From NCBI GenBank assembly GCA_014534425.1, contig JACVRN010000008.1:1-64000 (forward strand): 64,000 nt of DNA, in the 5' to 3' direction. The DNA is from Pyrinomonadaceae bacterium. Its GTDB lineage: Bacteria > Acidobacteriota > Blastocatellia > Pyrinomonadales > Pyrinomonadaceae. A program made the position numbers and the translations under genes. The notes beneath the pieces are model-generated. The model worked only from the letters and a program-made list of their open reading frames with translations, ran no database searches and had not been told where the DNA came from. This document shows positions 3,538-53,490 of the stretch, in pieces. The first letter of the stretch is position 1, and the number at the start of each line of letters is the position of its first letter.

Positions 3538-3579
3538 ACTATCGTGTGAATAACAGGATGAAAGGAATCAACAAAGAAA

Positions 3580-4101
3580 ATGGCAACTAGGGAGAATGAG
3601 CTTTTCAACAGATACAGGAACGCCGCAGAGACGCGCCCGCGATTAAAAGAACTGCGAGCCAAGCTACTCGAAATAGGCGGTGATGAAATTGTCTGCCCAC
3701 TCGATTTTGACCAGCTAGACGATGATTTAGACAACATCCTAGACAGAGGCGTAATTTGGAAAAAATGGCGCGTGCGTATGTGGGAAGGAGTAGAGAGCCA
3801 GTGTCACACGAACTCTATTCTCCTGTGGACTGTTAAGCCTGATGATATGCGAATAGCTACAGGGTTCGCGCTCTCGCCTGATGGACTCTGGCGGCAGCAC
3901 AGTTGGTGCGTGTCTAAAGATAAGCGGCGGGTATATGAGACAACAGTACGCCGTACCATTTACTACGGCTATGTGCTGACAGAGCGCGAAAGCCTAATGC
4001 GGTTCAAGAGTATCCTTCCGCGCGAAATGCGCCATCACTTCAAGAGCGGCTGGAATATGGAGAACTTGCGGCAGTTCCGGCACGCGCTTAAAGTGGCTTG
4101 A
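3580..4101 (+). CDS. Hypothetical protein
   Basis: 173 aa ORF shortly downstream of the primase-like gene. Confidence 0.6.
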   Translation: MATRENELFNRYRNAAETRPRLKELRAKLLEIGGDEIVCPLDFDQLDDDLDNILDRGVIWKKWRVRMWEGVESQCHTNSILLWTVKPDDMRIATGFALSPDGLWRQHSWCVSKDKRRVYETTVRRTIYYGYVLTERESLMRFKSILPREMRHHFKSGWNMENLRQFRHALKVA

Positions 4102-4330
4102 AATGCTCAAAACAGCCCGCGTATGCCGCTTCTGATATTCACTCGGAAGAAAACCAAAGTGATAGCAAAAACTTTTGACGCCCTTATGTCTCTAAACGCC
4201 GAAAAATAGAAGGTTTATGGCTGAAATTCGTTCTTTTTAGTGCGAAAAACACCATTCACTTTTGGTATTCATTAATCCTCACTTTGAGCCATCATTCATG
4301 CGTTGTCGTTGATGGTCTGAAACTGTAGGA

Positions 4331-4350
4331 AACATGGTTTAACATGGTTG
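4331..4350 (+). repeat. Two tandem 10-bp units AACATGGTT(T/G)
   Basis: aacatggtttaacatggttg in intergenic DNA. Confidence 0.5.
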
Positions 4351-4476
4351 TACCCCGAAGGTCATGCTTTCGACCCTGCTCAGCCGCAAGTAAGCGTGAC
4401 CCCGTGACCTTGAAATGATTTCAACCCCTATGGCTATCCTCTTCTTGCACACAACAGCACCCAATATCCAGCCACA

Positions 4477-4842
4477 CTATTTTCTTGCGCTCTTAGATTT
4501 GGATAAGAGAATAGCCAAGACCAAGAGAAGTATTCCACCACAACACCACCCTGCACCCACATTTTGCCCGCCTGTTTCAATCCACCTGATGTCAGACCCT
4601 ACGCGGTGAATATCGGAAATGGTAGGCTGTTCGCTAACAAAATAAGCGATACACATTACTCCGGCGATAGTGAGAATTACTGACACTATCGTTAAGTCCT
4701 TTTTTCTTTTACTTCTCTCCTTATCAGTAAACGATGGTGATGGCTTTGGCGGATTAAGGACAAAATCAAATCCACAATTCCGGCATTTAGAATCTGAATC
4801 CGCGCAAGGATAGTTACAGTTAGGGCAAGGTGAAGAAGGCAT
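4477..4842 (-). CDS. Zinc-ribbon membrane protein
   Basis: CPNCNYPCADSDSKCRNCGFDF ribbon plus two hydrophobic segments. Confidence 0.7.
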   Translation of the reverse strand: MPSSPCPNCNYPCADSDSKCRNCGFDFVLNPPKPSPSFTDKERSKRKKDLTIVSVILTIAGVMCIAYFVSEQPTISDIHRVGSDIRWIETGGQNVGAGWCCGGILLLVLAILLSKSKSARK

Positions 4843-5052
4843 GACGATTATCGCGGCTCTCTGCTATGCTTACGCTCTGTTCGTTTGACAATGCCTATGC
4901 GTAATGTGGCGCTGCATCGTCTGTAATGATTACCGCTCGGAAATCAGCATTAAGGTTTCCGGCGAAACAAAATTGCGATGCAATAATAAAGTCAAATGAC
5001 TTTAGCGGCAAGATAGAATTAGCTGTTGCTATGTCGGGAGGAAACTTCTGAC

Positions 5053-34092: not shown

Positions 34093-37000
34093 CTACTTTT
34101 GATATGCGCCCTGAATAGTTATAGCCAGCCGCTCGGCAGTGATTAGCTGTCGCCAGAATGCGCGAGACTTGATGGCGGACGCGCTGCTGTTGCTGCCTCC
34201 TCCGGCAGAGATGGTGAACGCAGAGCGCACGGCTTCGTCATTCATGTAGCTCAACTGAAGCAGCCGCTCGGACGCCTGCCGGATGTCCGTCTCCTTCAAA
34301 GCTTCGGGCGCGGCATCGTCCACACCGCCGAAGACCGAGCGCAACTCTTGCCTGAGCGCAGAGACTTCGCGCTGGTAAGCGAGCGCGTGCTCACGCACCA
34401 TAGCAATCCATTTAGCGCGTGCCTCGGGCGCGAGTGCCTGAAGCTCTTCCGCCGAAAATCTTCCGGCGAGACGCTTGAGCGCGGAGGCGTGCAGGAGCGC
34501 CTGGCGCGAACGATTCATGACGCGGTTGCTGTAACGGTCTATCTCTTCTTCAACGGCTGCATCGCCCACCACGCGCCCACTAAAATATGCGCGCAGTTCC
34601 GCGTATGCCGGGATTCGATTATTCGGAACCACAACCTCGCGCTCTGTGACGTTCGGCTTTCTGGATTTGTCCTGCTGGTTGCGTACGGCTTCGCCGATTG
34701 TTGCGACCTCGACCCTGACGGCAGGGTTATTGATTATCGGAGAGAGGGCGCGAAGAATCTCTTCCTTGCGCCCCTCCGACTCGACGAGAGCCTCGACGCG
34801 TAGCTGTCCTCCTGCGGTTCGCGCCATGCTCACCTGTTCGCCGAGATTCGCTTTAATACGGTTGAGCAGGTAGGTGACTTCAATCTCAAGCTCAGGCGAC
34901 GCCACTGCGGACGAAGCTTCGGGCGCTGGAGAAGTGGAGTCCTTCAAGCCGTCCTGAGCCTTCGGCTTATCCGTCTCTTTTCTGTCGGAAGGCGAGTTGA
35001 GTTCTGCATCAGGGATGAAGAAAGAGCGGCCAACGTGGCTCTTCGGATATTTTTCGAAAAGCTCTTCTCCGAAGCGGTACTCGTGGCGCGACCCTTCGCG
35101 CTCTATAACAAGCTTCTGCCCGATTGCTCGCAGGTCGCTCTGTCTGAGCGTCAGCGACGCGGACACAAGCGATACAGAATCGCTTCTCTGCGCGCGGCTC
35201 ATTTCGATGACGTACGCGCCAGCCTCTTCTCTGACAGACAGTCCCGCGCTGTTTCCCACGAGCGCCGAAAAATCTTTCGCAGATGCTTCGAGCCGCCACA
35301 ACTCGCCCGTCTCAAGCAGAGCCTTTGCGACCAAAGACGGCGCGGCTCGCTCCTGCGGCTCGTCTCCGTGCTGGTAAACGGTGCTAGTGCCGTTCGTCCT
35401 TATCCATTCGCCCGCGATTAAGTTGCCCTGCTCGTCGTACACGCGCCGCGCCGTCAATTCTCTGGCCGCGCTCTGCCACACCTCTATGCGGTTTCTGGCA
35501 ATCAGGCGAGTCCCGTTATCTCCCCACTCTTCGAACCTTAGACGGCGATGAAAGACCATCTCCGCGTTACCAGAGCGCTTCTCTTCCGCCGCGATTGAGC
35601 TTTGAAGGAGCGACGCCGCGTTTGTCTCTGGCGCACGCATCTTCAGAAAGACGAGCGCGCCTATGAGTAGAAGAGCCAGCGCCGCAGTGACCAGCCCCGG
35701 CCACAGTCGCAAACGTGTGCCGACGAAGCGCCGCCAAGCATCCTTCAGAAATGCGGCGAAGCCCACGTGCGCGTCAGCCTCTTGAGTGTTCACAGGCCGA
35801 CGAGCTTCATCAACGGCTGCCTGTCCGGTTAGCTCTTCCGATAATTCTTCTGCGAGAGCCTCCGCTTTCATGAGCGGGTCGTGATAGGTCGTGTGAAGGG
35901 TCGGCCATTTGTTGTCGAACGAAAGGGTCAGTTCCAGAGAGCGCCCGTCGCTCAATTCCACACGCGTAGGCTGGCGGACTGCGCCTGCGGGCGGAGGCTC
36001 AACATTGAGGAAGAAGAGGCGCACGTCCTGTTCGCTGCACACCTCTACAAAGCCCACGCCCTCCGCAATGCTGATGTCAAGCGTCTGCTCCGTCAACTCC
36101 GAATTGATTCTCTGCGAGCCAAGGATGAAACCGTTGACCAGAAAATATAGCTCCTGCGGCCTGTGCTCGTAGACCTCTCTTGCGCGCCTGCGGTATTTAT
36201 TGAAATGCTCATCGCCGCCACGCTTGTCTCTGCCACGCGCGCCTTTCCCCTTCGGCGCAGAATCCTTTCCAATCATGTCCGGCGGGTGGCGCTCGTTAAG
36301 AGAAGAGAGGCCAAGCAGGGAATTGACAGTTTCAAGACAGGCGCGGCAACTCACAATATGCGCCAGTTGCTTGACGGATAGTTGAGCCGCGTCGTCGCGC
36401 TTGTAAATCCGCTCAAGCTCTGCGCGCTCCAAACAATCGCCCTCTCTTGAATTGAAAATCATGCGGCGCAACTCGCTCAAAAAGTCGCCGGTGCCCTGTA
36501 TGCTGCGCGCTTCTGTGATTTCAGGCGGAGCGCCGTTTATGAATCTCAGCCGCGTGGGGTCGTCCAGGTAGAAGCGCGCTTCGTTGCGCGCGATTCTCAG
36601 CCGCTCGTCCACGGCGCGTCGATTGGTTTTAACTACGCGAGCGATTTCCGAAGGATAGTAGCCGTGAAAGAAGCGAAGGATAAGGATGCTTGCGGCGCGT
36701 GCAGTCTCTTTGCGAACGCAACTGTAATGGCAGACGCGGCGCAAGTCTTCCTGCACCTGAAGCTGCTCGATTGAGCCTACAACGCGCAGCGCCAACTCAA
36801 TCGTGTCATATTCAAAGACGGATAGCTGCTGCAAGCGGCTGCGCGAAGCACGTCGTTCCTGCGAGAGGTGTAAATTTCGCAGCACGTTATACAAATATCC
36901 TTCTAGATTTGTGATGCTGTTTATGTCGGGGCGGGCGACCGTGAAGTGTATGAAAGCCTCTTGAACAATATCTTCGGCCTTCTCCTGGTCTTTTTCGGTC

Positions 37001-37155
37001 AAGCGTAGCGCCCAGGAGCGCAACTCTGCGTAGCGCTCTATAAAGATGTCTTCATGGCTTGTGGCGACCGGACGAGGTTTCAGCATCATTCGCGCTTCCC
37101 GGCTTAGACCATTTAGGTTCCTACAATATAAAGACGCACGGAATTTCTCAATCAC
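34093..37155 (-). CDS. ECF-type sigma factor fused to HC2-like zinc finger, TM helix and large periplasmic domain (start may be internal)
   Basis: AEDIVQEAFIHF region 2; YPSEIARVVKTNRRAVDERLRIAR region 4; HIVSCRAC zinc finger; LWPGLVTAALALLLIGALVFL TM. Confidence 0.85.
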   Translation of the reverse strand: MIEKFRASLYCRNLNGLSREARMMLKPRPVATSHEDIFIERYAELRSWALRLTEKDQEKAEDIVQEAFIHFTVARPDINSITNLEGYLYNVLRNLHLSQERRASRSRLQQLSVFEYDTIELALRVVGSIEQLQVQEDLRRVCHYSCVRKETARAASILILRFFHGYYPSEIARVVKTNRRAVDERLRIARNEARFYLDDPTRLRFINGAPPEITEARSIQGTGDFLSELRRMIFNSREGDCLERAELERIYKRDDAAQLSVKQLAHIVSCRACLETVNSLLGLSSLNERHPPDMIGKDSAPKGKGARGRDKRGGDEHFNKYRRRAREVYEHRPQELYFLVNGFILGSQRINSELTEQTLDISIAEGVGFVEVCSEQDVRLFFLNVEPPPAGAVRQPTRVELSDGRSLELTLSFDNKWPTLHTTYHDPLMKAEALAEELSEELTGQAAVDEARRPVNTQEADAHVGFAAFLKDAWRRFVGTRLRLWPGLVTAALALLLIGALVFLKMRAPETNAASLLQSSIAAEEKRSGNAEMVFHRRLRFEEWGDNGTRLIARNRIEVWQSAARELTARRVYDEQGNLIAGEWIRTNGTSTVYQHGDEPQERAAPSLVAKALLETGELWRLEASAKDFSALVGNSAGLSVREEAGAYVIEMSRAQRSDSVSLVSASLTLRQSDLRAIGQKLVIEREGSRHEYRFGEELFEKYPKSHVGRSFFIPDAELNSPSDRKETDKPKAQDGLKDSTSPAPEASSAVASPELEIEVTYLLNRIKANLGEQVSMARTAGGQLRVEALVESEGRKEEILRALSPIINNPAVRVEVATIGEAVRNQQDKSRKPNVTEREVVVPNNRIPAYAELRAYFSGRVVGDAAVEEEIDRYSNRVMNRSRQALLHASALKRLAGRFSAEELQALAPEARAKWIAMVREHALAYQREVSALRQELRSVFGGVDDAAPEALKETDIRQASERLLQLSYMNDEAVRSAFTISAGGGSNSSASAIKSRAFWRQLITAERLAITIQGAYQK

Positions 37156-37222: not shown

Positions 37223-37249
37223 GCACGAAACCGGTAGCGGGTCTCGTGC
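37223..37249 (+). promoter_or_regulatory. 5' leader hairpin copy 1
   Basis: GCACGA ... TCGTGC followed by aaaatttg and RBS. Confidence 0.55.
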
Positions 37250-37275
37250 AAAATTTGGATTCTCAGGAGGACGTA

Positions 37276-37887
37276 ATGTCGAGAAAACTCAAGGCGCTGA
37301 AGGCGCTGTTCGCATCGGTCGTGATGGTTGTTGCCGCGTCTGCGGCGATGGGTCAACTGGATAAAATAAAGCCGGTTGGTGTTAAGCCCACCCTGGGGTG
37401 CTGCAAATGTCTGGGAGGAACAAACACGCTTGACCTCAGCACAGTAAGCTCAAACAATTGGACTGTGAATGGTAGTCCGGCAATTTTCCTGACAGCGATT
37501 CACCCGCTCTGGAATATTAACCCGGGGCCAGCCAAGTGGATTTCGAGCGCGGCAACGGGCGGTACCGGCACCATGCCTGCCGGGCCTTACGAATACAGAT
37601 TGGAATTCGTGGTTCCGGCCTGCTCGATTGAACAGAAAGTTACCTTGAGCGGAAACTACGGCGGTGACGACGATGTGCAAGTCTTTCTGGATAACGCGCT
37701 GATCTCGCAATGCGTTGGAGGCTGGTGCTTCAATACCCCTAAGAAAACTCTGCCAACCTTCAGCACTGCTGTCGGCTCCGGCTCGCATGTCCTGAGAGTC
37801 AGGGTCGTCAACGGCAGCCCCAGCCCTTCCGGCATGTTCGTCAACGCGAAACTGAGCGGCACCTGTACAAGCCAGCCTACGAAATAA
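37276..37887 (+). CDS. Secreted hypothetical protein
   Basis: MSRKLKALKALFASVVMVVAASAAMG signal peptide; Cys-containing beta-rich mature part; aggagg RBS. Confidence 0.8.
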   Translation: MSRKLKALKALFASVVMVVAASAAMGQLDKIKPVGVKPTLGCCKCLGGTNTLDLSTVSSNNWTVNGSPAIFLTAIHPLWNINPGPAKWISSAATGGTGTMPAGPYEYRLEFVVPACSIEQKVTLSGNYGGDDDVQVFLDNALISQCVGGWCFNTPKKTLPTFSTAVGSGSHVLRVRVVNGSPSPSGMFVNAKLSGTCTSQPTK

Positions 37888-40009: not shown

Positions 40010-40119
40010 ATTACTTCGGCTGCACGCGCTCCTGATAAAAATTCTGAGTATCAAACCTCCTGCAATTGCGCTATTCTGTCGCTGAATTTTCCGACCGCTC
40101 AGACCAAGGCCATCTGCCT

Positions 40120-40674
40120 ATGCCTGACACCAAGGTGAAAAAAGAAGTAACACGGGAAAATTTTGCGAGCTTTCTGGCATGGCTCAGTCCTGATGATGCC
40201 CGTGCGGGCGAAGAGTACGAGCGCCTGCGCTTTCGGCTCTACACCTTTTTCTCACAGCGCCGTTGCAGGTTTTCCGAAGAGTTGACGGACGAAACTATCA
40301 ACCGCGTGATTCTGAAAATCGGTGAAGAGCAGATAGAAAACAAGCTGGCATATTGTTACGGCGTGGCGAGGAATGTCTTCAGGGAATCCTTGAGGAAAGA
40401 GCGCGAGCATCTGGACATTGACGAGGTGGCAATCGCCGCGAGCGCCCCCGAAGAGAAGAGCTTTTCAAGAGAGTGCCTGGACAAATGCCTCGCGGAGCTT
40501 TCGCCTGAGAGCCGCAGTCTTATCCTTGATTACTTCTCCGAAGTCAGGCAGGCGAAGATTGATCTTCATCGCCGCATCTCGGAAAAGCTTGAGATGTCGC
40601 AGACGGCCCTGCGTATGCGAGTCATGCGAATCAAGAAGAACCTGAAGCTGTGCGTGCACGAATGCATGAGCTAA
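40120..40674 (+). CDS. Sigma-70 family (ECF-like) sigma factor
   Basis: ELTDETINRVILKI...YCYGVARNVFRESLRKE; C-term SEKLEMSQTALRMRVMRIKKNL HTH. Confidence 0.75.
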   Translation: MPDTKVKKEVTRENFASFLAWLSPDDARAGEEYERLRFRLYTFFSQRRCRFSEELTDETINRVILKIGEEQIENKLAYCYGVARNVFRESLRKEREHLDIDEVAIAASAPEEKSFSRECLDKCLAELSPESRSLILDYFSEVRQAKIDLHRRISEKLEMSQTALRMRVMRIKKNLKLCVHECMS

Positions 40675-40730
40675 AAAACTCGGAGTTACATAACGCCCGA
40701 TAATGACACAATAAATTGGGGCGGCGAATT

Positions 40731-41993
40731 TTGATAGACGAATCCTTAAAGAGCGAAAAGACAGTCCGCGAGTACCTTCTGGGCAGAGTTTCCGACGAAG
40801 CCACGCTCGAAGGGCTTGAGGAACTGTTGTTCACGGATGAAGAGTTCTGCTCCGAGGTAGAGCTTGTGGAAGACTCTCTCATAAATGATTACGTGCTGGG
40901 GCGCATGACGGAAGCGGACGCCGCGAGTTTTAGCGCGACGCTCGCGGACAATCCAGAGAGACGTTTCAAGCTGGAACTGACGGAGGCTTTGAGAGAGAAG
41001 GCTCTGGCAGAGAAGCCCGAAGTTCTGGAAGCCGGGCCGTCATTCTTCGCATCGCTGAAAGCCTTCTTCCGCCAGCCCAAGATGATAGCAACGTTCGCCG
41101 TCCTGCTCATCGCCGCGCTCGTTTCAGTCGTTTACCTGACCAGCAGAAGAAGCAGCAGCACAGGCGCGGACGATCTTGCGGAGTTGCGCCAGATTTATCA
41201 GAAGGAGCGGCCCACGGAGACGCGCATCGCGGAGTTCGGTTACGCGCCCGCAGGCGAGCTACGCGGCGAGCCGGAAGAGAGAGACAGGAGCCGCCTGCGC
41301 CGCATAGAGAACAGTCTGATAGAGGCCACGGAAAAGAGTCCCGGCGCACGGACGCATCACTCGCTAGGCGTCTTTTATCTCACGCAGCGCAAGTACACGG
41401 ACGCTATCAGGGAATTCGAGAGCGCGCTGAAATTTGACGCCAGCAGCGCGAAGATTCACAACGATCTGGGCGCGGCATATTTTGAACTGGCGAAGTCGGG
41501 CGGCAAAGAGAAGAGGCTGGAGAACCTTGGGCGTGCCCTGGAAGAGTTCACGAAGGCAACAGAGTTGGACGGCAATCTCCTTGAGGCGCTTTTTAACAGG
41601 TCGCTGGCGCTACAGGAGTTGCGATTGCCGCGAGAGGCGAAGGAATCGTGGGCGCTCTACTTGCAGAAGGATTCGTCTTCGCCGTGGGCCGAAGAGGCGC
41701 GCAGGCAGATGGCACGGCTCGAAAGCGAGCAGACGCTCTTCAAGACTCCCGAACAGGTCTTGGAAGATTTCCTGGCGGCTTACCGCAACCGTGACGACGC
41801 TCGCGCGCAGAAGATTCATAATGAGACGAAGGGCTTGTTAAAGGAAGCCGCAGTCCCGCTTCAACTCTCGAAGAGATACTTGCTGGCGAAGCGTCAGGGG
41901 GCAGAGCCGGAGGCCAGGGAGAGCCTGGACGCGCTCGCCTACATAGGCAGTTTCGAGCAGTCGCAATCGGACGAGTTTTTTTTTCTGAGTTAG
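40731..41993 (+). CDS. Anti-sigma-like N-term / TM / TPR half of a split TPR-CHAT protein (start 40716 or 40731)
   Basis: YLLGRVSDEATLEGLEELLFTDEEFCSEVELVEDSLINDYVLGRM; MIATFAVLLIAALVSVVYL TM; TPR units; ends after a T9 run. Confidence 0.8.
   Translation: MIDESLKSEKTVREYLLGRVSDEATLEGLEELLFTDEEFCSEVELVEDSLINDYVLGRMTEADAASFSATLADNPERRFKLELTEALREKALAEKPEVLEAGPSFFASLKAFFRQPKMIATFAVLLIAALVSVVYLTSRRSSSTGADDLAELRQIYQKERPTETRIAEFGYAPAGELRGEPEERDRSRLRRIENSLIEATEKSPGARTHHSLGVFYLTQRKYTDAIREFESALKFDASSAKIHNDLGAAYFELAKSGGKEKRLENLGRALEEFTKATELDGNLLEALFNRSLALQELRLPREAKESWALYLQKDSSSPWAEEARRQMARLESEQTLFKTPEQVLEDFLAAYRNRDDARAQKIHNETKGLLKEAAVPLQLSKRYLLAKRQGAEPEARESLDALAYIGSFEQSQSDEFFFLS
41976..41984 (+). other. 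T9 homopolymer at the frame junction between TPR and CHAT ORFs
   Basis: gag ttt ttt ttt ctg agt tag in frame 0; -1 frame reads F S E L A G F Y A G V G A D K I E G L L Q A R E. Confidence 0.85.
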
Positions 41994-41998
41994 CCGGA

Positions 41999-44260
41999 TT
42001 TTACGCAGGCGTCGGCGCGGATAAGATTGAAGGGCTGTTGCAGGCCAGGGAAGTTCTTGAAAGCGGGCACCGCTTCGTCAAGCAGGACGATTACGCGAAG
42101 GCCATCTCGGAGTTTGAAAAAAGCCGTGACCTCTTCGCAAAGCTCGGCGACGGGGCCGAAGCAGGCTTGGCGGAGAATTGGGCGGTTCAATTCCTGCCGG
42201 ACGTGGCGAAGTTTGAAGAAGGTCGTCGTCGTCTAGCGGCCATCATCGAATCGGCTAGGACTCTTAAATTCAAAGTCCTGATTGCGCCCGCCTATTACTG
42301 GCTAGGCATCAGCGATTATCGTCAGAACAACCTTTCGCAGTCGAACAAGAATTTAAAGACTGCTTTGCGACTGGCCGAAGCCTCGCGCAATGTCATAGAG
42401 ACTCATCACGCGCAGGAAGCGTTGGCCCGTAACTATTCCAGACTTGGCGAGCTTGAGACGGCGCTCCTTTACGCAAGCGAGCAACTTCCCGACCGAGAGC
42501 TTTATTACCAGAACATTAATCAAACCCTGCGAGACCAGAGCACGCTCGCGGCCCTTTCGCTCAGGCTGAAATTCTTCTCGACCTCCCTGAGCTTCTCAAA
42601 AGAGGCGCTGAGCCGCATTCGGGAGATGTCGCCCGCGAGCATCCGGGTCAATCAGAATTTGCGAAACATGGTGAACGCAGCCGCCGCGAAAGGAGATTTC
42701 GAAGCCGCATTGAACTACGCTAACGAATCAAAACAGTTGACCGTAGGGCGCGAGCAGAGCGCAGAGAATGTGCAGACCGCCGCAGAAATCTACCTGCTGC
42801 TCGCGGACTTGAAGAGCCGTATGAAAGACTGCAACGCGGCCCTCACGGATTACGACAAAGCGCTTGAGCTTTACGCTCGGGTGCCGGAGCTTACGGTCGG
42901 CTCGTATCAGATTCACAAGGGCAGGCTCTTCTGCTTTCAGCAGCTTAATCGTCAGGAAGATTTCTCAGCAGAGCTTAGGACTGTCTTGAAACTGTCGGAA
43001 GAGTATCGCGCAACGATTCGTGAGGACAGCTTGCGTCAGACATTCTTCGCCAGCGAGCAGGATGTGTTTGACGTGGCGATTGACAATGCCATAAGCGCGC
43101 GGGATGCGCGCGGCGCTTTTGCCTTCGTGGAAGAGTCAAGGTCGCGCTCGCTGCTGGACTTTGTAGAATCGGACAGGCCGATTGCGGAACTCGAAAAGAC
43201 TTTCGGCGCGGTGGCCCGTCCCCTCTCGCTCGCGGAGATACAGGCGCGGCTGCCGGAGAAGTTGCAGCTAATCGAATACGCTGTGCTGCCCAACAGGCTG
43301 GCCGTATGGGTCGTCTCGAAGACCCGTTTTGATTTCATCGAAAAGGCTATCACGTCGGACGAGTTGGAAAAGAAGATAGTCGCTTATCAATCTGCGGTCG
43401 TCGGGAAAGCGCCTGCGCCGGAAGTCAGGCAACAGGCGAAAGAGCTTTACGAGATTCTGATTCCGCAGGGGCTGGACGCAGGAAAACAGATTTGCGTTGT
43501 TGCGAACAAGTCGCTTCATCAGCTTTCGTTCGCCTCGCTCGTCTCGCCGTCGGGAAAATACCTGCTGGAAGATTTCGTCTTGTCCTATTCGCCAAGCGCT
43601 TCCGTTCTGGTGGTAGCAACGGAGAACGCGCTCAAGCGTGAGCAGGCCAGGAACGAGAATCTTCTCAGCATTGGCAATCCCGATTTTGACCGCGAAGAGA
43701 ATCCGAATCTTGCGGACTTGCAGGCCGCAGAATCGGAAGCCAAGACGATTGCAGCAAGTTACCGTAACTCATTAGAACTCATCGGCACAGAAGCCACGAA
43801 GGAAAAGTTTCTGCTTAACTTTGGTAACTCGGAGGTGATTCACTTCGCGGGCCACTTCGTAGCCAACCGTCAATCGCCGGGTAATTCAAAGCTGCTCTTT
43901 GCGGGCGGCGACCTGCGCTCGTCCGAACTCGGCGGCTACAAATTGCCGCGCGCGAAGCTCGTAGTGCTGTCGGCCTGCGAGACTGCGTTCGAACGTTACG
44001 ACAAGAGCGAAGGCGCAATAGGCGTGGCTAGAACTTTCCTGGCGCTCGGCGCTCCACTGGTCGTCGCAAGCCAATGGAAAGTTGATTCGGAGCCGACTAG
44101 GGATTTGATGGTCGCCTTCCATCGCAACCGTAAAGAGAAAGGCTTGAGCACAGCCGAGAGCCTCAGGCTCGCGCAGCTTGAGGTCTTGAGCAGAGACAGA
44201 ACCGCCGCGCCCTTTTACTGGGCCGCGTTCTCGCTGATAGGCGGTTACAGCAACTACTGA
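41999..44260 (+). CDS. TPR-CHAT caspase-like protease half, open in -1 frame upstream through the T9 run (ORF call starts 42038 TTG)
   Basis: EVIHFAGHFVANRQ and LVVLSACETAFERYDKSEGAIGVARTFLALGAPLVVASQW CHAT motifs. Confidence 0.85.
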   Translation, partial: FYAGVGADKIEGLLQAREVLESGHRFVKQDDYAKAISEFEKSRDLFAKLGDGAEAGLAENWAVQFLPDVAKFEEGRRRLAAIIESARTLKFKVLIAPAYYWLGISDYRQNNLSQSNKNLKTALRLAEASRNVIETHHAQEALARNYSRLGELETALLYASEQLPDRELYYQNINQTLRDQSTLAALSLRLKFFSTSLSFSKEALSRIREMSPASIRVNQNLRNMVNAAAAKGDFEAALNYANESKQLTVGREQSAENVQTAAEIYLLLADLKSRMKDCNAALTDYDKALELYARVPELTVGSYQIHKGRLFCFQQLNRQEDFSAELRTVLKLSEEYRATIREDSLRQTFFASEQDVFDVAIDNAISARDARGAFAFVEESRSRSLLDFVESDRPIAELEKTFGAVARPLSLAEIQARLPEKLQLIEYAVLPNRLAVWVVSKTRFDFIEKAITSDELEKKIVAYQSAVVGKAPAPEVRQQAKELYEILIPQGLDAGKQICVVANKSLHQLSFASLVSPSGKYLLEDFVLSYSPSASVLVVATENALKREQARNENLLSIGNPDFDREENPNLADLQAAESEAKTIAASYRNSLELIGTEATKEKFLLNFGNSEVIHFAGHFVANRQSPGNSKLLFAGGDLRSSELGGYKLPRAKLVVLSACETAFERYDKSEGAIGVARTFLALGAPLVVASQWKVDSEPTRDLMVAFHRNRKEKGLSTAESLRLAQLEVLSRDRTAAPFYWAAFSLIGGYSNY

Positions 44261-44261
44261 G

Positions 44262-45245
44262 ATGATACGCACCTGCCCAAAATGCCTGGACTACTACGCG
44301 GACGAAGCGCTCATGTTCTGCCTCACGGACGGCGCGCCGCTCGTCGCGGTCGATCCGCAGAGCGACGCCTGGCGCGAGGGCGTGCGCGTCATCGAAGAGA
44401 AAGAGAACCGGCTCAGCAGACAGGAAAGAAAGCGAAAGTGGCGGCGAGGTTTAATGCGTGCGGCGACGATGCTTTTGACGGCTATGGTCTTGTTCGTCAT
44501 AGTCATGAACGGCGTCGTCTATCTCAACCCTAAGCCGGAAGAGGAAGGCGCTCAGGACGAGCCTTTGGCTAAGAACGCGACCGACGAGCCGAACGCTCCT
44601 TCTCCAAAGAGCATTCCGGGCAAAGAGGCTCCGGCGAAATGGTCTACCGTCACGCCGCAACCGACCGCGACTCCAATCGCAACAGAAGTAATCGCCCCGA
44701 CACCGCGTCCGACTCCGTTTCAGACGCCCGCGCAAACTCCTACACCATTCCCGACACAGACGCCCTGGTCTGACGCTACGCCAAGACCAACCGCAACTCC
44801 AATCACAATAACAATAGTTACAGCGACACCAACGCCGACTCCCGTGTGGACGCAAACGCCCGTTTTGTCATCACCGCCGCCGCCAACTCCTACGCCTACG
44901 GTAACTCAGAGACCTGCGGAGACGACTTGCTCTGACGCAGACAGAGCGCGCGAGAGGGAGACCATCATCAGTAGTTACGGCGGCAGGTGGCGGCGCAACA
45001 TCGAAGGCGAGCGCCAGAAAATCATAGCCGAGAACGCGCCCGACGGTGCCGCAAACGCCGAGGCCGTTTTAGGTGAGATTGAATACGCGACCACCTTCAT
45101 TATGTCTTGCCGTTCGGCTGCGGTCATTCTCAGGTACGTGTGGCAGGTCAGGACGAACTTCAACGGGAAGATAACATCACGGCCTATCGCCAAGAGTAAA
45201 AGGGTCGTCTGCACTAAAGTCGCAGGGGTTTGGCTCTGTCGCTGA
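44262..45245 (+). CDS. Zn-ribbon N-term, TM, Pro/Thr-rich linker protein
   Basis: CPKCLDYYADEALMFCLTDGAPLV; TM AATMLLTAMVLFVIVMNGVVYL; TPTPTP linker; starts 2 nt after CHAT stop. Confidence 0.8.
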   Translation: MIRTCPKCLDYYADEALMFCLTDGAPLVAVDPQSDAWREGVRVIEEKENRLSRQERKRKWRRGLMRAATMLLTAMVLFVIVMNGVVYLNPKPEEEGAQDEPLAKNATDEPNAPSPKSIPGKEAPAKWSTVTPQPTATPIATEVIAPTPRPTPFQTPAQTPTPFPTQTPWSDATPRPTATPITITIVTATPTPTPVWTQTPVLSSPPPPTPTPTVTQRPAETTCSDADRARERETIISSYGGRWRRNIEGERQKIIAENAPDGAANAEAVLGEIEYATTFIMSCRSAAVILRYVWQVRTNFNGKITSRPIAKSKRVVCTKVAGVWLCR

Positions 45246-45265
45246 GCGCGATTTTTCATCAGGCA

Positions 45266-45307
45266 GCGTTACGTTTAGCCTGCAAGACCGCACTCTAAGA
45301 TGAAAGC
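45266..45307 (+). promoter_or_regulatory. Repeated upstream motif, copy 4
   Basis: gcgttacgtttagcctgcaagaccgcactctaagatgaaagc. Confidence 0.5.
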
Positions 45308-45340
45308 TTTTCCAGGAACGATTATGACAGGAGAACAATT

Positions 45341-46195
45341 ATGTCTATCAAAGAAAGTTCAGCCACAGCGCTCGTCAGATTCACGGGCCTCGGCATCATC
45401 TGCTTCAACAAAGAGCTTGGGCGCGGCGAGGTCGCGGCCATACGCGACGACAAACACGCTTTGAGCATCAGAATTCAGCGCCCCGTCTTTCAGGAAGGAA
45501 CCGGCAGCGACCACGTTGCCTATAGCGACATAGCGACTTACGAGAAGCTTCCGAAGGAAGAGGTGGAGATTGAAATTAAGGCCGCCGACAGGCCCGCCAT
45601 AGAAGGCTATGAAATTTATCAAAGCGGAGAGTTTGACAGGCTAGGCTCGGCGGACACCAAAGACTTTCGCTGGCTCGTGAGGATGGAATCTCTGCACGGC
45701 AACGGCGACGCGCTTCTCAACCCCACGGGGCAACCGCGCCACCCTTTGACGAAAATATACATAGGCAACGGACTCTTCTACACACAGAAGCTAGACACGA
45801 ATCTCTTCTTTGAAAAGGTGGAAGTGGACGCGAGCGGGCGTCGCCGCGAGCCGCAAGCCTTCGGCAACGTAGGCGAAACTATGGGCGTCAAGATAGAGGC
45901 CGAAGAGGTCAGCTTTACCATTCGCATAGGCGGCAGGGAAGAGTCGCACACGCTCAAGCGCATAGAGGGCCTGCCCTTCAGAATCGAAATCAAGAACATG
46001 GACTATAGCGGGAGCGGCGTTTACAGCGACATGGAAGATTACTACGGTTATCTGGCAAGCCCGGACGGCACGCGCGTAGACTTAAGCCCTGTCGTAGAAG
46101 AGACGGCAGCCAAAGGCGGCTCTGTAAATCAAGTGGACTTCTGCCACCCGATTGTTTCCGACCTGTCGTCCATAGATAAGCTCTCAGAGCCATGA
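45341..46195 (+). CDS. Hypothetical protein, overlaps protease gene
   Basis: 284 aa ORF; caggaga RBS; ATGA overlap with 46192 ORF. Confidence 0.78.
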   Translation: MSIKESSATALVRFTGLGIICFNKELGRGEVAAIRDDKHALSIRIQRPVFQEGTGSDHVAYSDIATYEKLPKEEVEIEIKAADRPAIEGYEIYQSGEFDRLGSADTKDFRWLVRMESLHGNGDALLNPTGQPRHPLTKIYIGNGLFYTQKLDTNLFFEKVEVDASGRRREPQAFGNVGETMGVKIEAEEVSFTIRIGGREESHTLKRIEGLPFRIEIKNMDYSGSGVYSDMEDYYGYLASPDGTRVDLSPVVEETAAKGGSVNQVDFCHPIVSDLSSIDKLSEP

Positions 46196-47475
46196 TATTT
46201 TTCGCGCTGGAAAGACACCTGATCTGGTCGCGCCCGAACGGCAACGGCGGCGTCACTACCCTTTATTACTACGACGAAATAACCTGGGTAGTGACCGCGC
46301 TCTTGCTAGCCTGGCTGACATGGCTCCTCGTTCGCAGGTACAGGCGCTCGCTCGCGCTCAGGCGTCCACGCCGCCGCACGGATTACGGTCTGCTCAAACG
46401 AATCATCAAACTCAAAGACGAGTTAAGCTCGCGTTATCTCAGGCTTGGTTTCTCCGCGAACATACACGCCATAGGGATAGGGCGAACCGATGACGACAGC
46501 GCCTATTGCATACAGGTTTTCGTCTCGGACGCGAATCAGGAGTTGTGGCCGGGCGCAGGCGCTGCGACACTACCCGCCAGTTACGGCGGCGTTCCGCTCG
46601 TCCTCATAGAAACGGCTCCGGCAATTTTTTTGTCGGACGCGGATTTCAGTTCGCTTGCGGCGAGTGAACATTACTCGAACGGAATTCGTGGGCCGCAGGA
46701 AGTGATAATCGGAGGAATCAGTGGCGCGAACACCAACCTGAGCGGCCAGAGCGGAACCATAGGCTATTTCTGCACGCGCAAAAGTCGTTGGTCTAGACGA
46801 AAAGAGATTCACCTGCTGAGCAACTCGCACGTCTTCGCAGACCTCAGAAAGACGACCGTCGACGCAAGCGACCTGATAATGCAGCCCAGTCCGGGCGAGC
46901 CTGCGAGCAATCGTCCCATAGCGGCGCTGGTAAACTTTTCCGCGCTCAGGTTCGATGCCGACATAAAGGAGCCGAACCACGTTGACGCAGCCATAGCCAA
47001 ACTGTGGGACACGCATCGTCACAAAGGCGTAATCCCCCTGATAGGAGCTGTCAAAGGCTACGTGCCGAAGAAGGAGATTCAGGTGGGCGAGGCCGCGCGC
47101 AAGTTCGGGCGAACTACTGGCTACACGGAAGGGAGCGTCTTCTCAATCTACCTTGATATCTGGATACGCTACGACCGCACCGCCCAGTCGGCATTTTTCA
47201 AGAACCAAGTGTTGATTAAACCCAGGCTGCCGGAATTTACAAAATTCGTGAGCAAGGGCGATAGCGGCTCTTTGGTCGTTGACGCTGAACAACACGCGCT
47301 CGGCCTGATTTTCGCCGGAACGCCCGACCCGCCTAAGCCCTCACAGGTTTCGCCCGACACTACGCCAGAGAATGATGCGGCCACGGATAATCTGAAAAGA
47401 ATCGAAAGCTACGGCGTGGCGAATCCCATCAGTGACGTTCTTGAGCGGCTCAATATTGAGTTGCTTGAGGCTTGA
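46192..47475 (+). CDS. Membrane-anchored trypsin-like serine protease
   Basis: N-terminal TM; LLSNSHVFADL (His), NHVDAAIAKL (Asp), GDSGSLVVD (Ser). Confidence 0.82.
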   Translation: MIFFALERHLIWSRPNGNGGVTTLYYYDEITWVVTALLLAWLTWLLVRRYRRSLALRRPRRRTDYGLLKRIIKLKDELSSRYLRLGFSANIHAIGIGRTDDDSAYCIQVFVSDANQELWPGAGAATLPASYGGVPLVLIETAPAIFLSDADFSSLAASEHYSNGIRGPQEVIIGGISGANTNLSGQSGTIGYFCTRKSRWSRRKEIHLLSNSHVFADLRKTTVDASDLIMQPSPGEPASNRPIAALVNFSALRFDADIKEPNHVDAAIAKLWDTHRHKGVIPLIGAVKGYVPKKEIQVGEAARKFGRTTGYTEGSVFSIYLDIWIRYDRTAQSAFFKNQVLIKPRLPEFTKFVSKGDSGSLVVDAEQHALGLIFAGTPDPPKPSQVSPDTTPENDAATDNLKRIESYGVANPISDVLERLNIELLEA

Positions 47476-49591: not shown

Positions 49592-50713
49592 TTAATCGGG
49601 ACACTCTGTCGGAATGGCTGTGCCCGTCAGCAGGTCGTAGTACATAGCCCCGTGATGTTGCCAGAAGAAGTCTTTGGCATCGCAAGGATTTGTGCCCGGA
49701 ACACCCAGGAGACTATAAGGCGCTCCGCAGCCTGTAAAGTTGAGCGTCAATAAAAGATTGGGCAGGACGGGTTTGAAATCATCCGTCTGTGCGCTCTGCG
49801 GAATCTGCTTGGTCAGCACTTTCTCCTGAAACTCTGCGCTCGTGAATACCTGCCTCAGCGCATCCATCTTCGACAGGTGCTTCGATGCTTGGGCCAGCGC
49901 GATACTGTCTTTCAGGTTGTTGACTGACTGAGTGACGTTCGCAAGCGCTGCTGAGTTTTCGAGCAGCACGCTGAGCGGGTTGGGTGTGTTGATGTCGGAT
50001 GGCAGTTCCAATGTGAGCGGTGCCTGTGGAACCCAGTCCTGGCTGTTGTTGACGGTGTAGGCGAGACCTGCGTTGCCCGCGACCGAATTGTAATCGTAAC
50101 CGTACAGGTCATTGCCAGGCTTCGGCTGAGCGAAGACATACGTTTTATAGTTGTACATGGTGCCGAAGAGATTCACATTGTCCAGGGACAAATAGTTGAG
50201 ATAGGAACGACAGAGCGTGGCTATGGCTGCTCCCTGACTGTGGCCCGCTATAAAGATGTCGCTGCCGGGGAGGATGCCCTGTTCCACCAACTGCCAGATA
50301 ATACCCTTGCTCGGCCAGTACATCAGTATGAACATGGCTAGGGTAAAGCCCAAGTGGACTCCGGCATTTGTGTTATTCTTCGCCGCCAGTTGATAGTCAA
50401 GAGAGTAAGTGGTGCCGCCCAGAGTAAATCCTATAGATGCGTTCGCCGGTATCATCACCGACAGAAGGTCGTCGATGATACTTCCAGCCGCGTAGATGGT
50501 GCCCCTGATGAGAATGGCATACTGGCCCTGCGAATTGGATGCTAGCTGCCACCTGTTATCAAAGGGGCCTATCTGCTGCGAGTCGTAAATAATATTCCAG
50601 CCAGAAGGCCACGGCGGTTGTGTCAGAGGCGGCGGCGTCGTGCCTTCCAGAGCCGCGAGCATAGCTAGAAGCGGCTCGGCTTCGGTCGAATTGAATCCGG
50701 GTGTGAATGCCAT
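49592..50713 (-). CDS. Lipase class 3-like alpha/beta hydrolase
   Basis: IFIAGHSQGAAIATL nucleophile elbow; YAILIRGT. Confidence 0.82.
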   Translation of the reverse strand: MAFTPGFNSTEAEPLLAMLAALEGTTPPPLTQPPWPSGWNIIYDSQQIGPFDNRWQLASNSQGQYAILIRGTIYAAGSIIDDLLSVMIPANASIGFTLGGTTYSLDYQLAAKNNTNAGVHLGFTLAMFILMYWPSKGIIWQLVEQGILPGSDIFIAGHSQGAAIATLCRSYLNYLSLDNVNLFGTMYNYKTYVFAQPKPGNDLYGYDYNSVAGNAGLAYTVNNSQDWVPQAPLTLELPSDINTPNPLSVLLENSAALANVTQSVNNLKDSIALAQASKHLSKMDALRQVFTSAEFQEKVLTKQIPQSAQTDDFKPVLPNLLLTLNFTGCGAPYSLLGVPGTNPCDAKDFFWQHHGAMYYDLLTGTAIPTECPD

Positions 50714-50778
50714 AAAATTTTCTCCTTTGCAGGTTAAACAGTTAATCCAACCACTGAAATCAAATTACTCTTTACGTC

Positions 50779-53490
50779 TTACTGCGGAGGCGGAAGCTGA
50801 AAGGATGGGCCTGCGGTCGTGCCGTCCAGACCCGAAGGAGTTTGCATAAGCTGTCGCGCGACTACGCTCAGGGAGTACATAGTGCCGATTGCCTGATTCA
50901 GATAACCCGGCTCGCCGTTGAAGGTTCTGTGCAGGCCGTTCAGCAACGCTTGATACGTCTCGGCAAACTGGTCGGAGAGAAGTCGTGCGCGAGAGCCTGG
51001 CTTAAAGAACGCCGTGTCCGGGTCATCCATCATGGGCCAGATTCCGTCGGGGTCGAACGGAATCGGCGCTCCGGTATATGAATAGCCCGCTTTGCTGCGG
51101 ACTATGCGACGGCCCCTCACTATCTCTGCAAACTTATAGTAGTGGGCAAGCTCTCGGTCTGTGTCGTCCGGGTCAAGAGGCGAAGCGCCTTCGCCCTGCT
51201 CCTTAATCTCGTCAATGGCCGCGACTGCGTCCTCAAGGCTAGTGATGACGTAGAGTTTGCCCGTGCCTGTCCAGTCTGAGACCTGCCGCTCCGCGTGGCC
51301 GAAAGATATTTTGCCCGCGTTCGCCAAATCCGCGAGCGAGCGCTTAATCTCGTCATAGAACCAGCCGATGGTAAACAACTGCGGGTCAACGGGGTCTGTG
51401 GGGCGCACGTGCCTGTTGACAGGCTCTATTGTCACGGCAGGCTGCTCTATGGACATGAAGACATCTCGAATCTGTTGAATCGAGCAGCGACGCAGCCGCA
51501 CTTGAAGCCCTGCGCGCAGGCCGCCCGGAAGCGGGCCAGGATAGCGCGGCACAAAGCCCGGATAGCCTATTCGCGGCTCGCCGCCGAGTGAGACTATCAA
51601 GTTTGAAACGAGCGCCATGTGCAGCATCTCTTCTATGACGACGCTGCGAATCAACTCCGCGGCCTCCGTGTTTGTCCCCTGCTTGATGCTGTAGAGCGCG
51701 CACAGGTACGGCGGGATGGTAGAGTGCTCAAGCTCCACCGCCTGCTGTAAAGCAATAAAGAGGTCTTCGACCGAATCTATCTGCATGTAGAGCGGGCGCT
51801 CCAGCCACTTGCGTATCATCTCTCGCTTCGATGTTGAAAGGTCGCGCGTGACGGGCATGTAGTTTGGGTCTGTGACGGGCGTGTCGAAGACATTCTTGAG
51901 GATGGCGCGGCGGCCAATCACGCTCGCGTAGTCTGCTAAATCGACAATCGGACGCATCACTGGATAGAGGTTGGCGTATTGTTGAAATATTGGCTGCACG
52001 TCATGAAGCCACGTTGGCTGTTCCGGCACGTTGTAGCCTGACCAGACAAGCGCGTTCAATATCTGGCTGGGATTCTGAACGCTGCCCACGGGAGGCGGCG
52101 CACTGCCGAGCGCGTAAGTCACGCCGTAAACCTGCCCGTCAATGTACTCGCGCGGGTCGCCGGGGTCTCCGGCAGTGAGTTGAAGCTCGTATGTGCCGTC
52201 GGTGTTCGTCTGAAACTGCGTGTCGAAGAGAAGAGCTTTTTCGGGCACGCCGACTTTCGCTGGCCCCGGAATCGGCCCCTGAGATACTTGCTGCGCCATC
52301 TGCGTAGGGTCATAGCCCAAGCTAACCTGAGCATTGCTCATACGCTTGCCGTAAGCAGTAGCATAGAACGTGGTGCTTTTCTTATCGCCCGGATTGAGCC
52401 GGAAGACGAACTTGTCTGCGCGCAGCCATGTGCCGTTGGAGCTTTCGGCCAAGAGCGGCAGAAACCCCTGCGGGTAATTGTTGCTCCATTGCACTATGCC
52501 GAGCGGAGTCTTTTCGACATCCGCCAATTGTGAATCGGTCAAACGAAAAGAGACTATCCCAGCCGTCTCCTCGTACCAGCCGGAATCCCTGTACTCGACT
52601 TCGCCTATCAGAACCGGCGCGCCGTTTGCGGGCAGCATGGCAAGATAAAGCTGGCCCATATCCGCCAACGCGCCGCCAGCCGATTGCGTAGGCAGGCTAT
52701 TACCCAAATCCAGCGAGAGGATGCTGCCGTCTATCTCGACGTACGCGGTGTTGAGCGGCGGCTGCGGCGGCGGTTGCACGGACGGCAGAGCGCGACCGGC
52801 TATGAAGTGCGCTGGCTCGTCGTCCGTGTGCAGCCCAATCGCGCCGACCACTCGGCCAAAAGTAAATTGCTCCGAAGTGGAGTCGTCGTTATAGCCGTCC
52901 ACGTTAAAACGTATGCTGAGCTTCTCAGGCGGCTGGCCGCCTACGAGTAGCTCTTGAAGAAAGCGCGAGCCGTCGCCGCCTGCTTTGGCCCACACAATGT
53001 CGTGCAGCACGCTCTGATAAAAAGCGCCGAAGAAAGAGTCGGGCTGCCCGCCCGGAAAGCGAACCCAGATGTCCGCGAAGGGCGCGACCTTAAAGCGGCT
53101 GCGAAAAATGTTGTTGCGCCGCGTGCCGCCCAGAAGCACGTTGAAGCCCCAGATTTCCGAGACCATCTGTTGCTCGGAATCAAGGTCTACGAGCTTTCCC
53201 TCTACGCGCGAGTCCGTGTCGTTGACGGGCGCGCCGACCAGAGGGTCAACGTGCGGGTCGTCGCAGGCTGTTCCGTCGCCGTAGACGACCTGTCGCACAG
53301 TGCAGTTGCGAAAGCGCCACGCGCCTGTGCCAGCAGGATTCCACCAGCCGTTCGACGCGCCGCGTCCCGGCAACTGGTAATTGGATTGAAAGTCGCTTGA
53401 GTCGAAATGCTCCGGGTCGTTGTTGACCGTCGAAGGGTCTGCCTGAAACTGTCCTGCGAAGATAAGGCGGGGCGTCTTCAGATAGCTCAC
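50779..53490 (-). CDS. VioB-like / ferritin-like domain protein
   Basis: LRLIFAGQFQADPSTVNN-type start; LQQAVELEHSTIPPYLCALYSI...SVVIEEMLHMALVSNLIVSLGG. Confidence 0.82.
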   Translation of the reverse strand: MSYLKTPRLIFAGQFQADPSTVNNDPEHFDSSDFQSNYQLPGRGASNGWWNPAGTGAWRFRNCTVRQVVYGDGTACDDPHVDPLVGAPVNDTDSRVEGKLVDLDSEQQMVSEIWGFNVLLGGTRRNNIFRSRFKVAPFADIWVRFPGGQPDSFFGAFYQSVLHDIVWAKAGGDGSRFLQELLVGGQPPEKLSIRFNVDGYNDDSTSEQFTFGRVVGAIGLHTDDEPAHFIAGRALPSVQPPPQPPLNTAYVEIDGSILSLDLGNSLPTQSAGGALADMGQLYLAMLPANGAPVLIGEVEYRDSGWYEETAGIVSFRLTDSQLADVEKTPLGIVQWSNNYPQGFLPLLAESSNGTWLRADKFVFRLNPGDKKSTTFYATAYGKRMSNAQVSLGYDPTQMAQQVSQGPIPGPAKVGVPEKALLFDTQFQTNTDGTYELQLTAGDPGDPREYIDGQVYGVTYALGSAPPPVGSVQNPSQILNALVWSGYNVPEQPTWLHDVQPIFQQYANLYPVMRPIVDLADYASVIGRRAILKNVFDTPVTDPNYMPVTRDLSTSKREMIRKWLERPLYMQIDSVEDLFIALQQAVELEHSTIPPYLCALYSIKQGTNTEAAELIRSVVIEEMLHMALVSNLIVSLGGEPRIGYPGFVPRYPGPLPGGLRAGLQVRLRRCSIQQIRDVFMSIEQPAVTIEPVNRHVRPTDPVDPQLFTIGWFYDEIKRSLADLANAGKISFGHAERQVSDWTGTGKLYVITSLEDAVAAIDEIKEQGEGASPLDPDDTDRELAHYYKFAEIVRGRRIVRSKAGYSYTGAPIPFDPDGIWPMMDDPDTAFFKPGSRARLLSDQFAETYQALLNGLHRTFNGEPGYLNQAIGTMYSLSVVARQLMQTPSGLDGTTAGPSFQLPPPQ

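What the first reader, a model, noticed from the sequence alone, without database searches (positions are those of the whole stretch)
40120..47475. Candidate new regulatory-protease system: sigma factor, membrane TPR-CHAT protease, Zn-ribbon protein, unknown protein, membrane trypsin
Seen: co-oriented genes encode an ECF-like sigma factor, an anti-sigma-like/TM/TPR protein continuing into CHAT (His HFAGHF, Cys LSACET), a Zn-ribbon/TM/Pro-rich protein, an unknown 284-aa protein, and a TM-anchored trypsin-like protease with His, Asp and GDSGS motifs. Knowledge: TPR-CHAT proteases can act in defence or stress signalling, and in type III-E CRISPR (Craspase) TPR-CHAT cleaves Csx30, which is linked to an RpoE-like sigma factor. 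No CRISPR array or Cas protein is present here. Inference: a stimulus could activate CHAT proteolysis, release the sigma factor, and use the second protease as effector or amplifier.
Basis: partly seen in the sequence, partly recalled or inferred. Interest (0 to 1): 0.85.

Follow-up and report, generated by a model that had tools for sequence, protein, structure and literature searches.

The report
Slippage-split anti-sigma CHAT protease operon
A conserved operon in Acidobacteriota (class Blastocatellia) encodes a gene-switch protein (sigma factor) and a membrane receptor that is inhibitor and protease in one, and in four distantly related genomes the receptor gene is broken at the same run of nine T's in a way that only a 'stutter' in gene reading repairs, so the cell probably makes both a protease-bearing and a protease-less receptor from one gene.

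Summary
The genes are real and form a conserved operon: ECF sigma, membrane anti-sigma/TPR-CHAT protein, Zn-ribbon/TM protein, 284-aa protein, trypsin-like protease. Sigma, CHAT, 284-aa gene and trypsin are syntenic in nine other Blastocatellia genomes; CHAT His/Cys and the trypsin triad are invariant. It is not Craspase: the best structural match to the modelled receptor is DdvA, the transmembrane anti-sigma factor of Myxococcus xanthus with TPR-CHAT, so the core is a known kind. The receptor is NOT one ORF here: the frame breaks at a T9 run (41976-41984). Three other genomes (two more genera) break at the same codon, each needing exactly one extra T; nearly all other homologues are single ORFs. 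T9 is very rare in these genomes (7-10 places each), is kept even where Phe is 91-96% TTC, no shared start codon follows it, and both halves are under purifying selection. Best reading: programmed slippage (transcriptional, or less likely -1 ribosomal) makes a protease-less membrane anti-sigma and a full-length CHAT form. The 284-aa protein has no detectable fold relative; a secreted protein (37246-37887) is linked to the module in all four genomes carrying it. Slippage and signalling steps are inferred, not shown.

The parts
37246..37887 (+). secreted protein (213 aa, signal-peptide-like N-terminus), linked gene; possible ligand or partner of the periplasmic domain (function inferred)
   Evidence: only 4 of 119 family genomes have it (58-64% identity) and in all 4 it lies upstream of this module's sigma gene, adjacent to about 6 kb away
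40064..40082 (+). conserved promoter-like element AATTGMGYTATNCTGTCGC upstream of sigma (with a TAnnnT -10-like box)
   Evidence: aligned upstream regions of sigma; G000, G043, G106, G107 and G118 each have one copy with at most 1 mismatch, at this operon
40120..40674 (+). ECF sigma factor, 184 aa
   Evidence: NCBIfam TIGR02937/TIGR02989 below cut-off, Pfam Sigma70_r4_2 weak, 20-member alignment, PDB profile hits to ECF SigE/RpoE E 0.01
40731..41993 (+). short form: anti-sigma-like N-terminal domain, single TM (41082-41138), first TPR block; ends FFFLS-stop just after the T run
   Evidence: N-terminal region and TPR align with DdvA
41976..41984 (+). T9 slippery run, frame break; +1 T gives DEFFFSELAGFYAG, continuous with the CHAT half
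41985..44260 (+). second TPR block and CHAT protease (C-terminal part of the full-length receptor); catalytic His 43853-43855, Cys 43976-43978
   Evidence: PF12770 E 6.9e-57; His and Cys invariant in 28 homologues; model of the G043 homologue, pLDDT 87.8
44262..45245 (+). Zn-ribbon (CPKC...FC), TM, Pro/Thr-rich linker, small C-terminal domain with Cys; N-in topology predicted
   Evidence: orthologues only in the 7-member T-run clade L059-L063, L088 and window
45341..46195 (+). 284-aa all-beta protein, no TM or signal peptide; the general third gene of the sigma/CHAT loci
   Evidence: AlphaFold pLDDT 88.4; no PDB or viral fold match at E<=0.001; 23 of 24 profile hits in 119 genomes sit beside a CHAT gene already found
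46192..47475 (+). TM-anchored trypsin-like protease; His 46828-46830, Asp 46984-46986, Ser 47263-47265; catalytic part predicted cytosolic
   Evidence: triad invariant in 10 orthologues; NARROW LEAF 1 profile match; topology

Best explanation
A self-contained envelope-signalling operon of the DdvS/DdvA type. Shown: an ECF sigma gene is followed by a gene for a single-pass membrane protein with an anti-sigma-like N-terminus, a long TPR solenoid and a CHAT protease with both catalytic residues, then a Zn-ribbon/TM protein, a 284-aa protein without a detectable fold relative and a trypsin-like protease, behind one conserved promoter-like element. Shown: in four genomes of three genera the receptor gene is split at the same T9 run, in the middle of the TPR solenoid, each time by exactly one missing T, while both halves stay under purifying selection. 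Inferred: RNA polymerase slippage on T9 adds a U in part of the transcripts, so the operon yields (a) a protease-less anti-sigma-TM-TPR short form as the default and (b) a full-length CHAT receptor as a minority. Inferred: as suggested for DdvA, a periplasmic signal (perhaps the linked secreted protein or its ligand) triggers CHAT self-cleavage between paired receptors, followed by intramembrane proteolysis and sigma release; the short form cannot be cut and sets the threshold. The sigma then raises its own operon; the 284-aa protein and the cytosolic trypsin are outputs. These last steps are hypotheses.
For: Synteny in nine genomes besides the window. DdvA is the top structural match of the model (E 1.7e-20, TM-score 0.66 on DdvA) and the only sequence match at E<=1e-4 (3.1e-10). 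His/Cys invariant. T9 out of frame in window, G106, G107, G118; in frame in the other full-length homologues examined, of which only L069 (split elsewhere) and L070 were not cleanly resolved. Genome-wide only 9, 9, 7 and 10 T9 places in 4.8-7.4 Mb; the only run of 8 or more in the 64-kb window. Chance of three TTT codons from each gene's own Phe usage: 0.035, 8e-4, 5e-5, 0.10. dN about 0.23-0.43 with dS mostly above 1, alike on both sides of the run. No shared start codon after the run; conserved ELAxFYA precedes any start codon. No downstream RNA structure. Precedents for slippage with two needed products: Thermus dnaX A9, Shigella mxiE (PMC1088944), Citrobacter tssM (PMC4256274). A separate 354-aa anti-sigma/TPR-like gene lies beside sigma and CHAT genes at another locus of this genome (L077:2500-3564).
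Against: No RNA or protein data. The DNA does not separate transcriptional slippage from -1 ribosomal frameshifting or DNA-level phase variation. At least one of the four split genomes is a named metagenome assembly (G106) and the window's genome looks like one. G160 is in frame with a broken run (TTTGTTTTTT) and G043 is in frame with T10, so the split is not universal in the clade. The C-terminal tails of the short form are not conserved (5-41 aa). Neither the periplasmic place of TPR-CHAT nor self-cleavage was tested; charges around the TM are ambiguous.
Confidence: 0.6

Rival explanations
1. The break is a sequencing or assembly error, or a recent frameshift pseudogene; the real gene is one ORF as in other relatives.
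For: Homopolymers are the classical error site; G043 (T10) and most other homologues are single ORFs; G106 and G160 are metagenome assemblies.
Against: Four independent assemblies at 53-67% protein identity show the same one-base shortage at the same codon and no other break; T9 is kept against codon bias in GC-rich genes; about 750 codons downstream remain open and constrained in all four.
Confidence: 0.1
2. DNA-level phase variation: the T run gains and loses T's by replication slippage and switches the CHAT half on (T10, T7) or off (T9) in single cells.
For: T9 and T10 states both occur in the clade; on the tree the split state needs two changes.
Against: All four off states are T9, none T8 or T11; T9 has lasted over divergences with largely saturated synonymous sites, and both halves stay constrained, odd for mostly-off genes. 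Not excluded; both mechanisms can act on one run.
Confidence: 0.15
3. Programmed -1 ribosomal frameshifting on U_UUU_UUU rather than RNA polymerase slippage makes the full-length protein.
For: A -1 shift within T9 gives exactly the needed frame.
Against: No stable downstream structure in any of the four; nine T's kept where seven would do for ribosomes. Upstream Shine-Dalgarno-like stimulators were only looked at by eye.
Confidence: 0.15
4. Craspase-like cascade: CHAT cuts a separate partner (the 284-aa protein or the trypsin zymogen), and the second protease amplifies the signal.
For: The 284-aa gene is the constant companion of the CHAT gene; Csx29 is a distant CHAT relative.
Against: The 284-aa protein and the trypsin domain are predicted cytosolic, the CHAT part periplasmic (DdvA analogy); trypsin is missing from most sigma/CHAT loci.
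Confidence: 0.15
5. Two separately translated proteins: a deletion split the gene and the CHAT half now has its own start.
For: The window has a TTG 17 codons after the run with GAAGG upstream.
Against: G106 has no start codon for 68 codons after the run, G107 none for 61; the residues between are conserved in the CHAT frame.
Confidence: 0.04

Closest known systems
DdvA/DdvS of Myxococcus xanthus (PDB 8rot, 8rw5; cited in PMC12288465)
   Same: ECF sigma with a cognate single-pass transmembrane anti-sigma whose C-terminal part is TPR-CHAT; top PDB fold match and the only sequence match at E<=1e-4
   Different: Here about 1180 aa versus 991; CHAT His and Cys both present (DdvA's site is incomplete, from memory of the paper); T9 frame break; 284-aa and trypsin genes follow; no CBASS or CRISPR link was seen, though this was not searched for systematically
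Type III-E CRISPR Craspase (Csx29, Csx30, CASP-sigma; PMC10028731)
   Same: TPR-CHAT protease genetically tied to an ECF-like sigma; CHAT C-terminal similarity (NF041237 E 5.7e-7, 28.8 bits against a cut-off of 300)
   Different: Anti-sigma and protease are fused and membrane-bound here; no Cas7-11 or Csx30 partner identified; lower structural match
Programmed transcriptional slippage: Thermus dnaX, Shigella mxiE, Citrobacter tssM (PMC1088944, PMC4256274)
   Same: A- or T-run inside a gene yields two protein lengths; in mxiE and tssM the long form needs slippage
   Different: Not an anti-sigma factor in those cases; here seen by sequence comparison only
NARROW LEAF 1 (plant trypsin-like protease)
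   Same: Profile match over the C-terminal catalytic stretch
   Different: Bacterial, membrane-anchored, in an operon

Membership tests
DdvA-type transmembrane anti-sigma (TPR-CHAT) | Adjacent cognate ECF sigma gene | tested here: met
   Sigma directly upstream of nearly every full-length homologue examined; sigma models match below cut-off
DdvA-type transmembrane anti-sigma (TPR-CHAT) | N-terminal anti-sigma domain, one TM, TPR, CHAT in one chain | tested here: met
   Model and Foldseek top hit DdvA; sequence match across N-terminal region, TM and TPR; zf-HC2 in 3 of 28 members. In the window only after +1 T
DdvA-type transmembrane anti-sigma (TPR-CHAT) | N-terminal domain binds and inhibits the sigma | not testable with these tools
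   No complex prediction or assay available
DdvA-type transmembrane anti-sigma (TPR-CHAT) | TPR-CHAT in the periplasm | tested here: inconclusive
   Single TM, near-equal flanking charges
DdvA-type transmembrane anti-sigma (TPR-CHAT) | Controls a CBASS/CRISPR defence island | not tested
   PADLOC was run on the module's own proteins only, no hit; flanking genes were not scanned
Type III-E Craspase (Csx29) | Csx29 model over its cut-off | tested here: not met
   NF041237 28.8 bits against cut-off 300
Type III-E Craspase (Csx29) | Cas7-11 and Csx30 in the locus | tested here: not met
   The module's proteins have no Cas7-11- or Csx30-like match in Pfam, NCBIfam or PADLOC; genes further out were not scanned
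Programmed transcriptional slippage gene | A/T run of 9 or more, conserved, at which the frame changes, with a constrained downstream ORF | tested here: met
Programmed transcriptional slippage gene | Heterogeneous mRNA and two protein products | not testable with these tools
   No RNA or protein data
Trypsin-like serine protease | His, Asp, Ser triad with GDSGS | tested here: met
   H213, D265, S358 invariant in 10 orthologues
Known anti-phage defence systems (PADLOC 2023) | Match to a PADLOC model | tested here: not met
   0 matches for seven proteins

The most novel reading that the evidence does not exclude
A membrane anti-sigma receptor whose own protease domain is added by programmed polymerase slippage: one gene makes an uncuttable inhibitor and a self-cutting inhibitor in a fixed ratio, so slippage rate sets the switching threshold of the sigma factor. 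A 284-aa protein of undescribed fold and a linked secreted protein complete the circuit.
Probability: 0.4. Interest if true: 0.78.

Novelty: new variant of a known kind. Interest (0 to 1): 0.62.

Why it matters
DdvA showed that a CHAT protease can be built into an anti-sigma factor, but how such receptors are triggered is open. This family has a CHAT domain with both catalytic residues, constant partner genes, and in one clade a conserved frame break between the inhibitor half and the protease half. If the break is programmed, nature has already made the experiment that separates the two roles, and a cheap reporter test in E. coli would show it. It would also be an unusual case of slippage tuning a sigma-factor circuit.

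Tried and rejected
Craspase membership (Csx29 model far under cut-off). Known defence system (PADLOC). Downstream RNA stimulator for ribosomal frameshifting (no structure). Independent start of the CHAT half. A T-run that is merely ordinary codon use: rejected for the T9 genes, but not for the T7 genes G028, G041, G082, G057, where chance is enough. Fold of the 284-aa protein: no match in PDB or the viral library; Pfam, NCBIfam and PADLOC empty. Other T9 places in the own genome as further programmed genes: mostly short-frame (intergenic-like) contexts, one at the end of a phage-portal-like gene. Kaur et al. 2020 (PMC7159879) does not mention CHAT or sigma factors. The DdvA papers themselves (PMC11506125, PMC6061681) are not held, so DdvA details beyond the PDB titles and two other papers rest on memory.
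Full report
WHAT IS THERE. The window is a contig of a 5.43-Mb fragmented assembly (G000, 323 contigs, 89.8% complete). Named relatives of the receptor are Acidobacteriota, one of them labelled Blastocatellia. The sigma protein is an ECF sigma by similarity, though under curated cut-offs. The CHAT match is very strong. The own genome carries nine CHAT proteins.

THE FRAME BREAK. The anti-sigma/TM/TPR frame runs from 40731 to a stop at 41993. Just before it lies GAG-TTTTTTTTT-CTGAGTTAG. The CHAT frame passes the same run in another register. Adding one T gives DEFFFSELAGFYAG, which lines up without a gap with the intact relatives.

SYNTENY. In 119 genomes of the same family the CHAT half has relatives in 29, and the trypsin has close ones in the same places. 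Regions were fetched and mapped. Sigma, receptor, 284-aa gene and trypsin occur in this order in G043, G106, G107, G118, G009, G028, G041, G082 and G057. The Zn-ribbon gene is present only in the inner clade of seven (window, G043, G106, G107, G118, G009, G160). In most other loci the order is sigma, receptor, 284-aa-like gene, without trypsin. A profile of the 284-aa protein finds 24 places in 119 genomes; 23 lie next to CHAT genes already found, so this protein is the constant third member. Phylum-wide, 71 of 297 genomes have a match to the receptor profile at E<=1e-60, but many cover only the CHAT end.

THE T RUN IN RELATIVES. lines up the codon position in 36 genes. Window, G106, G107 and G118 have T9 and are out of frame by one T. 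G043 has T10 in frame, G009 T9 in frame in another register, G160 TTTGTTTTTT in frame, four more trypsin-bearing genes T7 in frame; more distant genes mostly have no run, with exceptions (T9 in L071, T8 in L101). L069 and L070 are not cleanly resolved in that table: L069 is split elsewhere, near codon 245, and L070 was given too long a start. The tree groups the four split genes with G043 and G160 at full support, order inside unresolved, and the split label needs two changes. Runs of T9 are rare: 9, 9, 7 and 10 places in the four genomes. In the window it is the only run of eight or more. Outside the run, Phe is TTT in 33%, 9%, 4% and 46% of cases in the four genes, so three TTT in a row has chance 0.035, 8e-4, 5e-5 and 0.10. 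These numbers treat genes as independent, which shared descent weakens, but synonymous sites are mostly close to saturated (dS mostly above 1; G106-G107 0.65). dN is about 0.23-0.43 on both sides of the run. Start codons in the CHAT frame after the run are not shared, and conserved residues come before any of them. So the downstream half is most likely read through from upstream. No downstream RNA structure was found. This favours polymerase slippage over ribosomal frameshifting but does not settle it. Baranov et al. describe dnaX and mxiE (PMC1088944); Gueguen et al. report for tssM that both lengths and their ratio matter (PMC4256274).

STRUCTURE AND KIN. The intact G043 homologue was modelled with 28 sequences (pLDDT 87.8). 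The run encodes the start of helix 412-421 inside the TPR solenoid, so the short form keeps the anti-sigma domain, the TM and the first TPR block. Foldseek's best matches are the two DdvA entries (E 1.7e-20 and 1.6e-19), then separase, then Csx29. Sequence search finds DdvA at 3.1e-10. [quoted passage not shown] an earlier paper says DdvS acts when DdvA is inactivated and that the signal is unknown (PMC4374960). From memory of the 2024 Science Advances paper, not held here: DdvA forms dimers, its CHAT site is incomplete, and self-cleavage followed by RseP was suggested. The 284-aa protein is a confident all-beta model with no PDB or viral match. The trypsin resembles NARROW LEAF 1 over its C-terminal catalytic stretch.

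TOPOLOGY. Hydropathy gives one TM in the receptor with near-equal charges on both sides; a TM in most trypsins, followed by 4-9 K/R, hence a cytosolic protease; one TM in the Zn-ribbon protein with an N-in signature; none in the 284-aa protein (one borderline segment in a distant member) or sigma. If the anti-sigma domain is cytosolic, TPR-CHAT is periplasmic, so direct CHAT-to-trypsin or CHAT-to-284-aa cleavage is not the simplest model.

REGULATION AND EXTRA PARTS. A promoter-like element lies about 38-56 bases before the sigma start and recurs upstream of sigma in relatives; in the five genomes G000, G043, G106, G107 and G118 it has one copy with at most one mismatch. Whether it is read by this sigma is unknown. 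The secreted protein at 37246-37887 has relatives in only three other genomes of the family, all upstream of this module. A separate gene for an anti-sigma/TPR-like protein without CHAT (354 aa) exists beside sigma and CHAT genes at another locus of the same genome (L077), which suggests that a protease-less form can be useful.

VERDICT. The core is a new variant of the DdvA/DdvS kind, not a new category. The conserved T9 break is the notable part and is directly testable. Confidence: operon and kinship about 0.9; break real about 0.9; slippage programmed about 0.6; the threshold role of the short form about 0.35.

Noticed in passing
window 34093-37155 (-): 1020-aa protein with an N-terminal ECF-sigma-like region (Sigma70_r2 E 1.3e-7) apparently fused to a Cys-containing segment, a TM and a long C-terminal part: a sigma/anti-sigma-like fusion on the opposite strand.
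   Followed up: no
window 37246-37887 (+): Secreted protein found in only 4 of 119 family genomes, always upstream of this module's sigma gene.
   Followed up: partly
L077:2500-7761 (own genome, C56): Another CHAT locus of the same genome has CHAT, sigma and a separate 354-aa anti-sigma/TPR-like gene without protease.
   Followed up: no
L104, gene 1289-4909 (-), about codon 94: In-frame A9 run between anti-sigma domain and TM of a GC-rich paralogue (AAA 6, AAG 33): a second possible slippage site, which would give a soluble anti-sigma.
   Followed up: partly
L112:494-2959 (own genome, C39): Phage-portal-like ORF ending at an A9 run with a head-morphogenesis-like ORF open in another frame behind it (identity judged by eye); may be two overlapping genes.
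   Followed up: no
L069:2761-6346: A further homologue split into two ORFs (245 and 924 aa) at another place, near codon 245; not examined.
   Followed up: no
L088 / L109 (G160, another family): Receptor 64% identical to the window's although the genome is assigned to another family, suggesting transfer between families; the contig ends before the trypsin would be seen.
   Followed up: no
window 49592-53490 (-): Class 3 lipase (PF01764) and a 903-aa protein with a Ferritin-like domain (PF12902, E 1.4e-61) side by side.
   Followed up: no
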